From Chloroflexota bacterium (GTDB lineage: Bacteria; Chloroflexota; Anaerolineae; Anaerolineales; Anaerolineaceae), in the NCBI GenBank assembly GCA_012798515.1, contig JAAZNB010000113.1, positions 1 through 32,603 on the forward strand: DNA of 32,603 nucleotides. Direction: 5' to 3'. Positions 24,738 to 28,387 of the stretch are shown in pieces (positions within the stretch are counted from its first letter, which is position 1; every line of letters starts with the position of its first letter). Under the pieces are notes generated by a model that worked only from the letters and a program-made list of their open reading frames with translations, did not search any database and was not told where the DNA came from. The position numbers were made by a program, and so were the translations under genes.

Positions 24738-24744
24738 CGTGGGA

Positions 24745-25016
24745 AAAGCGATGATGGAAACGAGTACGCTGGCCCGAGGCTGGCAGCGAACCCGGGGCAG
24801 GTGTGAGCCGGGGCAGCTGGGAGAGCGGAAAATCCTTCCGGAGCTGTGAACTGAACACAGAGCCATCTGTCAGTAGGGGTGCCGGAACCGCCGGCCGTTA
24901 CACCGGCGCAGACCTAACCGCGAGTCGGTTGCGTCTGAAAAGCGCTTGCCAGACGGCAAGAATTTGGGTGGTACCGCGGGAGTCCCTCTCGTCCCTTTGT
25001 GGATGAGAGGTTTTTT
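24745..25016 (+). ncRNA. T-box riboswitch controlling ileS (tRNA-Ile sensing)
   Basis: The leader shows the ordered T-box parts. Stem I begins with GATGATGGAAACGAGTA. The AG-bulge and distal loop region reads CAGCGAACCCGGGGCAGGTGTGAG. On the 3' side of Stem I, GGAAAATCCTTCCGGAGC offers ATC (24832-24834) as the isoleucine specifier codon. The conserved T-box GGGTGGTACCGCG is at 24966-24978; its TGGT bulge is complementary to an ACCA tRNA end, as expected for tRNA-Ile with discriminator A. A terminator follows. Uncharged tRNA-Ile should stabilise the antiterminator and allow ileS transcription. Stem I pairing was judged by eye; the exact 5' end is approximate. Confidence 0.93.
24985..25016 (+). 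terminator. Regulated terminator of the ileS T-box
   Basis: CCTCTCGTCC (24985-24994) pairs with GGATGAGAGG (25001-25010), ten pairs with one G-U, around CTTTGT. Six T residues follow. Its 5' arm lies just after the T-box sequence, as expected for the competing structure. Confidence 0.92.
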
Positions 25017-25023
25017 GGTAATT

Positions 25024-25124
25024 ACTCAGCCCGAGAAGAAAGGTTCCCCGATTTTGGGGGTGAATGGGCTGCGAAGCAGCCCATTCACCCCCAAAATCGG
25101 GCTTCTTTGCGCTAACGGCTGAGT
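25024..25124 (+). repeat. Long nested inverted repeat between T-box and ileS
   Basis: A perfect 26-bp inverted repeat (25047-25072 and 25076-25101) surrounds a GAA triloop. It is framed by a second perfect pair, ACTCAGCC (25024-25031) and GGCTGAGT (25117-25124), with a symmetric 15-nt unpaired stretch on each side. It is inside the ileS leader, past the T-box terminator. No T-run follows, and no copy was noticed elsewhere in the window. Confidence 0.9.
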
Positions 25125-25178
25125 GGTTACGTTTTTTGTTCTTTTATCTCGTTTTGATATCCATGTTCAGGAGGTAGG

Positions 25179-28100
25179 ATGTACAAACCGGTTTCTCCGA
25201 AGCTGAACGTTACCCTGATGGAGGAAGGGGTCCTGCGCTACTGGAAGTCACACAACATCTTTCAGCAGTCCATGGCCCTCAGGGAATCGGGTCCGGAATA
25301 CGTGTTTTTTGAAGGCCCGCCAACGGCCAATGGCAAGCCGGGGATCCATCACGTCCTGGCGCGGGCGTTCAAGGATATCTTCCCCCGTTATAAAACCATG
25401 CGCGGCTACCACGTCTCCCGGCGGGGTGGTTGGGATACGCACGGCCTGCCGGTGGAGATCGAGGTCGAACGCAAACTGGGCTTCACCAACAAGCAAGACA
25501 TCGAAAATTACGGCATTGCCAAATTCAACGAACTGTGCCGCGAATCGGCGTTTGCTTACATTCAAGAATGGGAAAAGCTGACCGACCGCATCGCCTATTG
25601 GGTAGACCTGAGCACGGCTTACGTGACCTACACCAACGGCTACATCGAGTCGGTGTGGTGGATTCTCAAGAGCTTCTGGGAAAAAGAGCTGCTTTACCAG
25701 GGTTTCAAGGTGGTGCCTTACTGCCCGCGCTGCGGCACGCCGCTCTCCGATCACGAGGTGGCGTTGGGCTACCAAGAGGCGTCCGATCCTTCGCTGTACG
25801 TGCGCATGCCGCTGGTCGACATGCCGGGCACGTCTTTCCTGGTGTGGACCACCACGCCTTGGACGCTGCCGGCCAACGTGGCCGTAGCGGCCAACCCTGA
25901 CCTGGACTACGTCACCGTCGAGCGCTCACTGCCGGAAGGCGGGCAGGAACGCCTGATCCTGGCCGAATCCCGCTTGCAGTCCGTATTTGGCGACCAGGAA
26001 GTGAAGATCGTCGACCGCTTCAAGGGCAAACAGTTGAAGGGCAAGCGTTATAACCCCCTGTTTACCTTCATGCCCACCGACAAACCTGCCCATTACATTG
26101 TGCTGGGCGATTTCGTCTCCGCCGAAGACGGCTCCGGGTTGGTGCACATCGCCCCGGCCTTCGGCGCCGAAGACATGCAGGTGGCCCTGGAGTCTGACCT
26201 GCCCATCTTGATGACCGTGGCCGAGGATGGCACTTTCATCCCCGAGATCCGCCCCTGGAGCGGCAAATTCGTCAAGGACGCCGACCCGTTCATCCTTCAG
26301 GATCTGGAAGCGCGCGGCCTGCTGTATCAGTCCGGTACCATCACGCACACCTACCCCTTCTGCTGGCGCTGTTCGACGCCGCTGTTGTATTACGCCCGCC
26401 CGACCTGGTACATCCGTACCAGCCAGTACAAAGACATGATGGTCGAATTGAACGACCACATCAACTGGTACCCGAGCCACATCAAGAACGGGCGTTTCGG
26501 CAATTGGCTGTCCAACAACATCGACTGGGCGCTGGGGCGCGAGCGTTACTGGGGAACCCCGCTGCCGGTATGGGAATGCAAAGATTGCCACCACCAGGAT
26601 TGCATCGGCTCGGTGGAGGAGCTCTCCGAGCGCTCCGGCCGGGATCTCTCCAGCCTGGACCTGCACCGTCCTTATGTGGACGATGTGCGCCTGCGCTGCC
26701 CCGAGTGCGGTGGCAGCATGCAGCGTGTCCCGGAACTGATCGATGTGTGGTTTGACTCGGGATCGATGCCGGTGGCTCAATGGCATTATCCCTTCGAGAA
26801 CGAGGTAGAATTCAAGAAACAATTCCCCGCCGACTATATCTGCGAGGCGGTGGACCAGACCCGCGGCTGGTTCTATTCTCTGCACGCCATCAGCACGCTG
26901 CTGTTCGAGCAGGAGTGCTACCGCAACGTGATCTGCCTGGGCCTGATCCTGGATGGGGATGGCCAGAAGATGTCGAAATCGCGTGGCAACGTGGTTAACC
27001 CATGGGACGTCATCAACCAGCACGGGGCCGACGCCATCCGCTGGTACCTGTACACCGCCAGCCCGCCCGGACAGGAGCGGCGTTTCTCCAACGATCTGGT
27101 GGCGGAAGTGGTGCGTAATTTCACCCTGACCCTGTGGAATACCTATTCCTTCTTCGTGACCTACGCCAACCTGGATGGCTGGAGACCCGATCCCAACGCC
27201 AAGGTCGAATACAGCGCCCTGGATCGCTGGCAGCTGTCGGCGCTGCACACCCTGACTCGCGACGTAACCACGGCCCTGGAGAACTACGACGTGCTGGGCG
27301 CTACCCGGCCGGTGGAGGCCTTCGTCGACCAGCTATCCAACTGGTATCTGCGCCGTTCCCGGCGGCGTTTCTGGAAGAGCGGTTCCGACGCCGACAAACA
27401 GGCCGCCTACGCCACGCTGCACCAGGCGCTGGTGACCTTGAGCAAACTGTTGGCGCCCACCATGCCCTTCATGGCCGAAGAGCTGTACCAGAACCTGGTC
27501 TGCTCGGTGGACCCGCAAGCGCCCGCCTCGGTGCACCTGGCGGACTGGCCGGCGTATGACGAGAGCATGATCGACGAGAAGCTAAACCGCGAAATGGCGT
27601 TGGTGATGAAGCTGGCCTCGGTGGGCCACGCGGCCCGCAACAAGGCCAACCGCAAGGTGCGCCAGCCGCTGGCCGAGGCGGCCTTCTCGGTGGGGAACGT
27701 CGAGGAACGCGGCGTGGTGGCAAAATATGCCGACCTGTTGGAAGACGAATTGAACGTCAAGCAGGTGCGCGCCCTGGATGCCGCTGCGGAGGCCGTGGCG
27801 TACAGCCTGAACCCGCTGCCCAAGCAGCTGGGGCAGAAATACGGCAGCCGCTTCCCGGCCCTGCGCAAGGCCATCCTGGCCTTCGACGCCGAAAAGGCTT
27901 CCCAGCAGCTGCTGGTGGGCGAGCCCATCCAGGTTTCGGTGGACGGCGAGCAGTACGATATCCTCCCCGAAGAGGTCGAAGTGCGCGCCCAGGCTCGCTC
28001 TGGCTATGCCGTGGCTTCCGAAGGAGCTTACCTGGCAGCCCTGGTGACCGACCTGACGCCCGAATTGGTCAAAGAGGGGCTGGCGCGGGAGTTCGTGCGC

Positions 28101-28331
28101 CGGGTGCAGGACCTGCGCAAGCAGGCCGACCTGGACATCTCCGACCGCATCCAGGTGTGCTACCAGGCCACGCCGCTGTTGAGCGAGGCCGTCGAGGACT
28201 TCCGCGATTACATCATGGCGGAGACGCTGGCAGTCAGGATGCAATCCTGCGCGGTGGGTGACGGATATGCCTCGGCCAGCGATGCTTTCGACGCCGAGCA
28301 GGTGACCGTCGGTCTACAACGGGCCTCCTGA
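25179..28331 (+). CDS. ileS: Isoleucyl-tRNA synthetase
   Basis: The 1050-aa class I synthetase charges tRNA-Ile with isoleucine. The HIGH-type motif appears as PPTANGKPGIHH (about residues 47-58), a variant spelled G-I-H-H. The KMSKS loop is intact in DGDGQKMSKSRGN (about 590-605). The editing (CP1) domain covers roughly 190-400 and includes VWTTTPWTLPANVAVAANP. Cysteine pairs typical of this form occur in CPRCGTPLSDHEV, CWRCSTPLLYYARPTWYIRTS and RCPECGGSMQRVPELIDVWFDSGSMP. The C-terminal anticodon-binding and extra domain matches the long, eukaryote-like IleRS form. AGGAGGT is 5 nt before the ATG. Expression is predicted to be set by the T-box leader. A 16-bp hairpin follows the stop. Confidence 0.97.
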   Translation: MYKPVSPKLNVTLMEEGVLRYWKSHNIFQQSMALRESGPEYVFFEGPPTANGKPGIHHVLARAFKDIFPRYKTMRGYHVSRRGGWDTHGLPVEIEVERKLGFTNKQDIENYGIAKFNELCRESAFAYIQEWEKLTDRIAYWVDLSTAYVTYTNGYIESVWWILKSFWEKELLYQGFKVVPYCPRCGTPLSDHEVALGYQEASDPSLYVRMPLVDMPGTSFLVWTTTPWTLPANVAVAANPDLDYVTVERSLPEGGQERLILAESRLQSVFGDQEVKIVDRFKGKQLKGKRYNPLFTFMPTDKPAHYIVLGDFVSAEDGSGLVHIAPAFGAEDMQVALESDLPILMTVAEDGTFIPEIRPWSGKFVKDADPFILQDLEARGLLYQSGTITHTYPFCWRCSTPLLYYARPTWYIRTSQYKDMMVELNDHINWYPSHIKNGRFGNWLSNNIDWALGRERYWGTPLPVWECKDCHHQDCIGSVEELSERSGRDLSSLDLHRPYVDDVRLRCPECGGSMQRVPELIDVWFDSGSMPVAQWHYPFENEVEFKKQFPADYICEAVDQTRGWFYSLHAISTLLFEQECYRNVICLGLILDGDGQKMSKSRGNVVNPWDVINQHGADAIRWYLYTASPPGQERRFSNDLVAEVVRNFTLTLWNTYSFFVTYANLDGWRPDPNAKVEYSALDRWQLSALHTLTRDVTTALENYDVLGATRPVEAFVDQLSNWYLRRSRRRFWKSGSDADKQAAYATLHQALVTLSKLLAPTMPFMAEELYQNLVCSVDPQAPASVHLADWPAYDESMIDEKLNREMALVMKLASVGHAARNKANRKVRQPLAEAAFSVGNVEERGVVAKYADLLEDELNVKQVRALDAAAEAVAYSLNPLPKQLGQKYGSRFPALRKAILAFDAEKASQQLLVGEPIQVSVDGEQYDILPEEVEVRAQARSGYAVASEGAYLAALVTDLTPELVKEGLAREFVRRVQDLRKQADLDISDRIQVCYQATPLLSEAVEDFRDYIMAETLAVRMQSCAVGDGYASASDAFDAEQVTVGLQRAS

Positions 28332-28352: not shown

Positions 28353-28387
28353 ACAAGAGCTGCGGCGTTCGACGTCGCAGCTCTTGT
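28353..28387 (+). terminator. Strong hairpin after ileS, possible terminator without T-run
   Basis: ACAAGAGCTGCGGCGT (28353-28368) pairs with ACGTCGCAGCTCTTGT (28372-28387), sixteen pairs with one G-U, around a TCG loop, 21 nt after the ileS stop. GGATTAAAGG follows, so the U-tract of a classical terminator is missing. Confidence 0.55.

What the first reader, a model, noticed from the sequence alone, without database searches (positions are those of the whole stretch)
25024..25124. Perfect 26-bp hairpin framed by a second 8-bp pair, between the T-box terminator and ileS
A stem this long and perfect with a 3-nt loop is rare in a leader and is not part of the standard T-box. The nested ACTCAGCC/GGCTGAGT pair with symmetric 15-nt internal loops suggests one designed structure or a palindromic element. 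It could protect or process the ileS mRNA, form a cruciform, or be a small mobile palindrome.
Basis: seen in the sequence. Interest (0 to 1): 0.62.

Follow-up and report, generated by a model that had tools for sequence, protein, structure and literature searches.

The report
Jumping mini-element beside the ileS switch
The perfect hairpin is one copy of a small, gene-less transposable element (a MITE) that inserted into the tail of the ileS T-box switch in a Chloroflexota bacterium; it is a new family of a known kind, not a new regulatory structure.

Summary
The hairpin is real, but it is the core of a longer unit. [quoted passage not shown] It has 14-bp terminal inverted repeats (GTAATTACTCAGCC / GGCTGAGTGGTTAC) and is flanked by a perfect 8-bp target duplication, GTTTTTTG (25010-25017 and 25131-25138). 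That duplication is the U-tract of the T-box terminator. The same genome holds 9 full-length copies (92-100% identical) and about 12 shortened ones. Of 14 insertions examined, 10 have perfect, site-specific 8-bp duplications. One further copy, also with a perfect duplication, lies in another Anaerolineaceae MAG. In 24 relatives the T-box-to-ileS distance is 64-117 nt without the element; here it is 214, and 214 minus 121 is 93. The ends match full-length IS66-family (single-ORF, ISBst12-type) elements in the same order, so an IS66 transposase most likely moved it. No IS66 transposase is assembled in this genome, so mobility today is unproven. A relative carries about 150 copies of a different-sequence MITE with the same ends and fold-back layout. 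Effect on ileS is untested; most likely it is a passenger that adds an RNase III-type hairpin and a weak second terminator to the leader.

The parts
24742..24999 (+). T-box leader of ileS (host sequence, target of the insertion)
   Evidence: Rfam RF00230, 94.9 bits, above gathering score 93
24985..25017 (+). T-box terminator hairpin (24985-25010) and its U-tract (from 25011)
   Evidence: terminator scan, 10-pair stem followed by TTTTTTGGTA; same place in relatives' leaders
25010..25017 (+). left 8-bp target site duplication GTTTTTTG
   Evidence: identical to 25131-25138
25018..25130 (+). MITE, 113 bp, IS66/ISBst12-type
   Evidence: 8 further full-length copies at 92-97% identity in the same genome and about 12 shortened ones, one 96% copy in another Anaerolineaceae MAG
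25018..25031 (+). left terminal inverted repeat GTAATTACTCAGCC
   Evidence: 55 matches with at most 1 mismatch in the genome, 0 for the reversed control pattern
25039..25043 (+). 5' strand of a predicted 5-bp middle helix
   Evidence: MFE fold
25047..25072 (+). 5' arm of the perfect 26-bp hairpin (family consensus 25 bp; the first pair is private to this copy)
25073..25075 (+). 3-nt loop GAA (TTC in copies L008 and L009)
25076..25101 (+). 3' arm of the perfect hairpin
25104..25108 (+). 3' strand of the predicted middle helix
25117..25130 (-). right terminal inverted repeat (GTAACCACTCAGCC read on the minus strand)
25131..25138 (+). right 8-bp target site duplication GTTTTTTG, which puts a second U-tract right after the element's closing stem
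25179..28331 (+). ileS, isoleucyl-tRNA synthetase (host gene downstream)
   Evidence: ORF of 1050 aa; PF00133 and anticodon-binding domain

Best explanation
The feature is an insertion of a 113-bp non-autonomous transposable element (MITE) whose ends are those of the ISBst12 group of the IS66 family. An IS66 transposase acting in trans cut the A/T-rich U-tract of the T-box terminator with an 8-bp stagger and joined the element there; repair duplicated GTTTTTTG (shown by the footprint; the transposase step is inferred). Because the duplicated octamer is the U-tract itself, the T-box terminator keeps its U-tract upstream of the element, so tRNA-dependent control of ileS should remain intact (inferred). 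In transcripts that read through, the leader carries one extra long hairpin (26-bp perfect stem inside a 14-bp closing stem), a plausible RNase III substrate in an organism that has RNase III. The closing stem is followed by the second copy of the U-tract, which could act as a weak constitutive terminator (both inferred). Most likely the insertion is near neutral for ileS.
For: Target duplications: 10 of 14 insertions of the family in this genome have perfect, site-specific 8-bp duplications and one has 7 of 8. The copy in another MAG also has one, CTATATTT. Dispersed copies: 9 full-length and about 12 partial. Empty sites: 24 relatives have T-box core-to-ATG distances of 64-117 nt; here 214, or 93 after removing element plus duplication. 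IS66 link: full-length elements of about 1.5-1.6 kb with PF03050 transposase end in GTAACT(A/G)CTCAG at both ends in several relatives; the G065 element has exactly GTAACTACTCAGCC at both ends, and the G180 element also has a perfect 8-bp duplication, CAAATTTC. Published ISDge4 (ISBst12 group, IS66 family), caught transposing, has ends GTGACTACTCAGCA / GTAACTGCTCAGCA and an 8-bp repeat (PMC12898284). RNase III is encoded in the genome.
Against: No IS66 transposase is found in this genome's assembly, so the helper is inferred from relatives. Four of 14 insertions lack a perfect duplication (one of these has 7 of 8). The assembly is a fragmented MAG with 8.96% contamination, so some copies may sit on foreign contigs. 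Nothing here tests any effect on ileS expression.
Confidence: 0.94

Rival explanations
1. The hairpin is a dedicated regulatory part of the ileS leader (a second attenuator or mRNA-stabilising stem) that evolved there together with the T-box.
For: It sits in the leader, folds very stably, and its closing stem is followed by GTTTTTTG, so it resembles a terminator.
Against: The same sequence occurs at about 20 unrelated loci; it is bounded by a target duplication; it is absent from 24 relatives' T-box/ileS leaders.
Confidence: 0.03
2. MITE insertion that has since been co-opted: the element now sets ileS level through RNase III cleavage or a second termination step.
For: RNase III present; 26-bp perfect stem; RNase III processing is documented for Correia MITE transcripts in Neisseria (review PMC10969869).
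Against: No expression data. Insertions show no bias for terminators (2 of 14 sites against 11% of A/T-rich octamers nearby). The perfect stem is a family property apart from its first base pair (25-bp consensus), so its perfection is no sign of selection at ileS.
Confidence: 0.2
3. A REP-type palindrome moved by a RAYT (TnpA-REP) transposase, or an IS200/IS605-type single-strand element.
For: Dispersed intergenic palindromes with hairpins.
Against: REP and IS200/605 elements make no 8-bp target duplications and lack long terminal inverted repeats (general knowledge); both features are present here.
Confidence: 0.01
4. Assembly artefact (inverted read joining).
For: Fragmented MAG, 768 contigs.
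Against: The same 113-bp unit is assembled at 9 places with different flanks, most with matching duplications, and in an independent MAG.
Confidence: 0.01

Closest known systems
IS66 family, ISBst12 group (e.g. ISDge4 of Deinococcus geothermalis)
   Same: Terminal repeats GTAATTACTCAGCC / GTAACCACTCAGCC (family consensus GTAACTACTCAGCC) against ISDge4's GTGACTACTCAGCA / GTAACTGCTCAGCA; 8-bp target duplication; full-length single-ORF relatives in the same bacterial order share the ends.
   Different: The element here has no transposase gene and is 113 bp, with a long central palindrome not seen at the IS ends.
Bacterial MITEs in general (Correia/NEMIS, ERIC, MITEPsy1)
   Same: About 100-200 bp, terminal inverted repeats, mostly intergenic, fold into hairpins when transcribed, presumed moved in trans (review PMC10969869).
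   Different: Different ends, target duplication length and transposase family; here most of the inside is one perfect palindrome.
G056-type MITE (different family of the same order, found here)
   Same: Same ends, 8-bp duplications (24 of 29), same layout: terminal stem, internal loop, 5-6-bp middle helix, asymmetric loop, 26-28-bp perfect hairpin in the copies folded.
   Different: Internal sequence largely different; about 150 copies instead of about 20.
T-box leader RF00230
   Same: The element lies directly behind it.
   Different: The element is not part of any T-box; Rfam's match ends at 24999.

Membership tests
MITE | short, dispersed, multi-copy within a genome | tested here: met
   113 bp; 9 full and about 12 partial copies
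MITE | terminal inverted repeats | tested here: met
   14 bp, conserved in the full copies with a few substitutions
MITE | target site duplication of fixed length, differing between copies | tested here: met
   8 bp, 10 of 14 perfect
MITE | no transposase gene inside | tested here: met
   113 bp; no ORF of 80 aa or more lies inside it
MITE | empty site in relatives | tested here: met
   24 T-box/ileS leaders of related genomes without it; no same-species genome was available
IS66 family (ISBst12 group) derivative | ends GTAA-, matching autonomous IS66 elements | tested here: met
   literature
IS66 family (ISBst12 group) derivative | 8-bp target duplication | tested here: met
IS66 family (ISBst12 group) derivative | helper transposase in the same genome (not strictly defining for a non-autonomous derivative) | tested here: not met
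   PF03050 absent from the assembly; a fragmented MAG may lack it
IS66 family (ISBst12 group) derivative | mobilisation by an IS66 transposase | not testable with these tools
   needs a transposition assay
T-box riboswitch component | part of the conserved T-box structure | tested here: not met
   outside the RF00230 match; absent from relatives' T-box leaders
REP / IS200-IS605 palindrome | no target duplication, no terminal inverted repeats | tested here: not met
   both are present

The most novel reading that the evidence does not exclude
The long perfect palindrome is itself under selection for spread. Two MITE families with the same IS66-type ends but largely different insides (G000-type and G056-type, with a third in G043) share one fold-back layout, and their arms change in pairs (A-T to C-G, loop flipped), as if hairpin-primed template switching or a structure-dependent step accompanies their multiplication.
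Probability: 0.15. Interest if true: 0.5.

Novelty: new member of a known kind. Interest (0 to 1): 0.3.

Why it matters
It turns an apparent new RNA structure into an identified mobile element with exact ends, so it should not be annotated as part of the T-box. It describes an IS66/ISBst12-type MITE group in Anaerolineae-type Chloroflexota (about 20 copies here, about 150 in a relative); I found no description of such elements in the literature I could search. The insertion in a terminator U-tract that is rebuilt by the target duplication shows how an element can land inside an attenuator without destroying it.

Tried and rejected
ileS leader-specific structure: rejected. Preference for terminator U-tracts: 2 of 14 sites against 11% expected nearby, so no evidence; the preference is for A/T-rich octamers (82% A+T against 41% background). 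Promoters in the region: none found. Plasmid or viral carriage: no meaningful match in plasmids, none in viral contigs. IS66 transposase in own genome: none. Covariation as proof of RNA function: paired arm changes exist, but palindromes can keep themselves perfect by template switching or inversion (flipped loops in L008 and L009), so this was not counted as evidence for an RNA function.

Full report
Observation. The 26-bp perfect stem and the outer ACTCAGCC/GGCTGAGT pair are present as described. The stem is the longest perfect hairpin in the window, 26 bp against 8-13 bp in shuffles, and the fold is 11 standard deviations more stable than shuffles.

Repeat family. A search of the window's own genome (4.9 Mb, 768 contigs) with 25015-25140 found eight further full-length 113-bp copies (92-97% identity) and about a dozen shortened ones. 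Fourteen insertions were inspected: ten have perfect 8-bp duplications, all different (GTATTTTC, GGTTTTTT, TCTTTATT, AAAAAAGG, TATTTATA and so on), and one has 7 of 8. The duplications, counted with that of the copy in another MAG, are 82% A+T in a 41% A+T background. A scan of one genome per species (GTDB) gave one further copy, in Anaerolineaceae MAG AS27yjCOA_78, with duplication CTATATTT. Together these are the defining marks of a transposable element without genes, a MITE.

Empty site. In 24 genomes of the same family with a T-box directly before ileS, the distance from the T-box core to the ATG is 64-117 nt, with nothing like the element; in the window it is 214 nt. Removing the element and one duplication (121 nt) leaves 93 nt, within the relatives' range. 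The insertion point is the U-tract behind the T-box terminator hairpin (24985-25010). Since the duplicated octamer is that U-tract, the terminator keeps it, and a second copy now follows the element.

Which transposase. Ends starting GTAA with 8-bp duplications are known marks of the IS66 family (PMC11946415). ISDge4, an ISBst12-group IS66 element caught transposing in Deinococcus geothermalis, has ends GTGACTACTCAGCA and GTAACTGCTCAGCA and an 8-bp repeat (PMC12898284). In the same order as the window, IS66 transposase genes (PF03050 with zf-IS66) lie in elements of about 1.5-1.6 kb whose two ends read GTAACT(A/G)CTCAG; the one in G065 has GTAACTACTCAGCC at both ends, and the one in G180 has a perfect 8-bp duplication, CAAATTTC. 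The window's genome itself shows no PF03050 match, so the helper is lost, unassembled, or was only transiently present.

Structure of the family. In nine of the ten full-length copies compared (nine here, one in the other MAG) the hairpin core is 25 bp, in one of them with changes on one side; the window copy has a private T-to-C change that makes it 26. Copies L006 and L007 each carry a paired change in the two arms, and L008 and L009 have the loop flipped. Such changes are expected from template switching or inversion within a palindrome and are not by themselves evidence of a selected RNA. Four copies share an 80-bp form that lacks one arm, three of them with perfect duplications. Either this form is mobile or the same deletion recurred; if mobile, the hairpin is not needed to jump.

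A wider group. Relative G056 has 153 exact copies of one end. Of 29 of its elements read, 24 have perfect 8-bp duplications. They share the ends and the layout (terminal stem, internal loop, 5-6-bp middle helix, asymmetric loop, 26-28-bp hairpin in the copies folded) but most of their internal sequence differs. G043 has a third version, duplication CATTTTTT. The shared layout is the most interesting observation here: either common descent with fast internal change, or selection for the fold.

Effect on ileS. Unknown. The T-box switch upstream is intact in sequence. The read-through transcript carries a hairpin long enough for RNase III, which the genome encodes; RNase III cleavage of MITE transcripts is documented for Correia elements (review PMC10969869). 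The closing stem followed by GTTTTTTG could terminate some transcription. Insertions are not enriched at terminators (2 of 14 against 11%), so the position is best read as a hit on an A/T-rich octamer. I put co-option at about 0.2.

Verdict.

Noticed in passing
window 28353-28387: A second clean hairpin (16-bp arms, one mismatch, 3-nt loop) about 20 nt after the ileS stop codon, with no T-run behind it; possibly a 3' stem or a different small repeat.
   Followed up: no
L045, L048, L049, L050, L060 (own genome): Very short (about 45-60 bp) units with the same GTAAYYACTCAGCC end and a degenerate opposite end, without obvious 8-bp duplications; perhaps decayed or minimal elements.
   Followed up: partly
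L015, L016, L018, L027 (80 bp) and L026, L028 (54 bp): Shortened copies: four share exactly the same loss of one hairpin arm; two keep only the last few bases of one end yet have a perfect or 7-of-8 duplication, so they were probably deleted after insertion.
   Followed up: partly
L012/L043 (G000:C451:5516): A copy whose hairpin tip is replaced by another palindrome (TTCCAGCGGCACGATCGTGCCGCTGGAA) and which lacks the right end.
   Followed up: no
L116:380-564 (G056): A 185-bp G056-type element with an internal duplication of its left half, still with a perfect 8-bp duplication.
   Followed up: no
L161, L180, L185 (relatives): In three relatives a T-box is followed not directly by ileS but by an ORF that looks like a SAM-dependent methyltransferase (by eye, not searched), with ileS behind it.
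   Followed up: no
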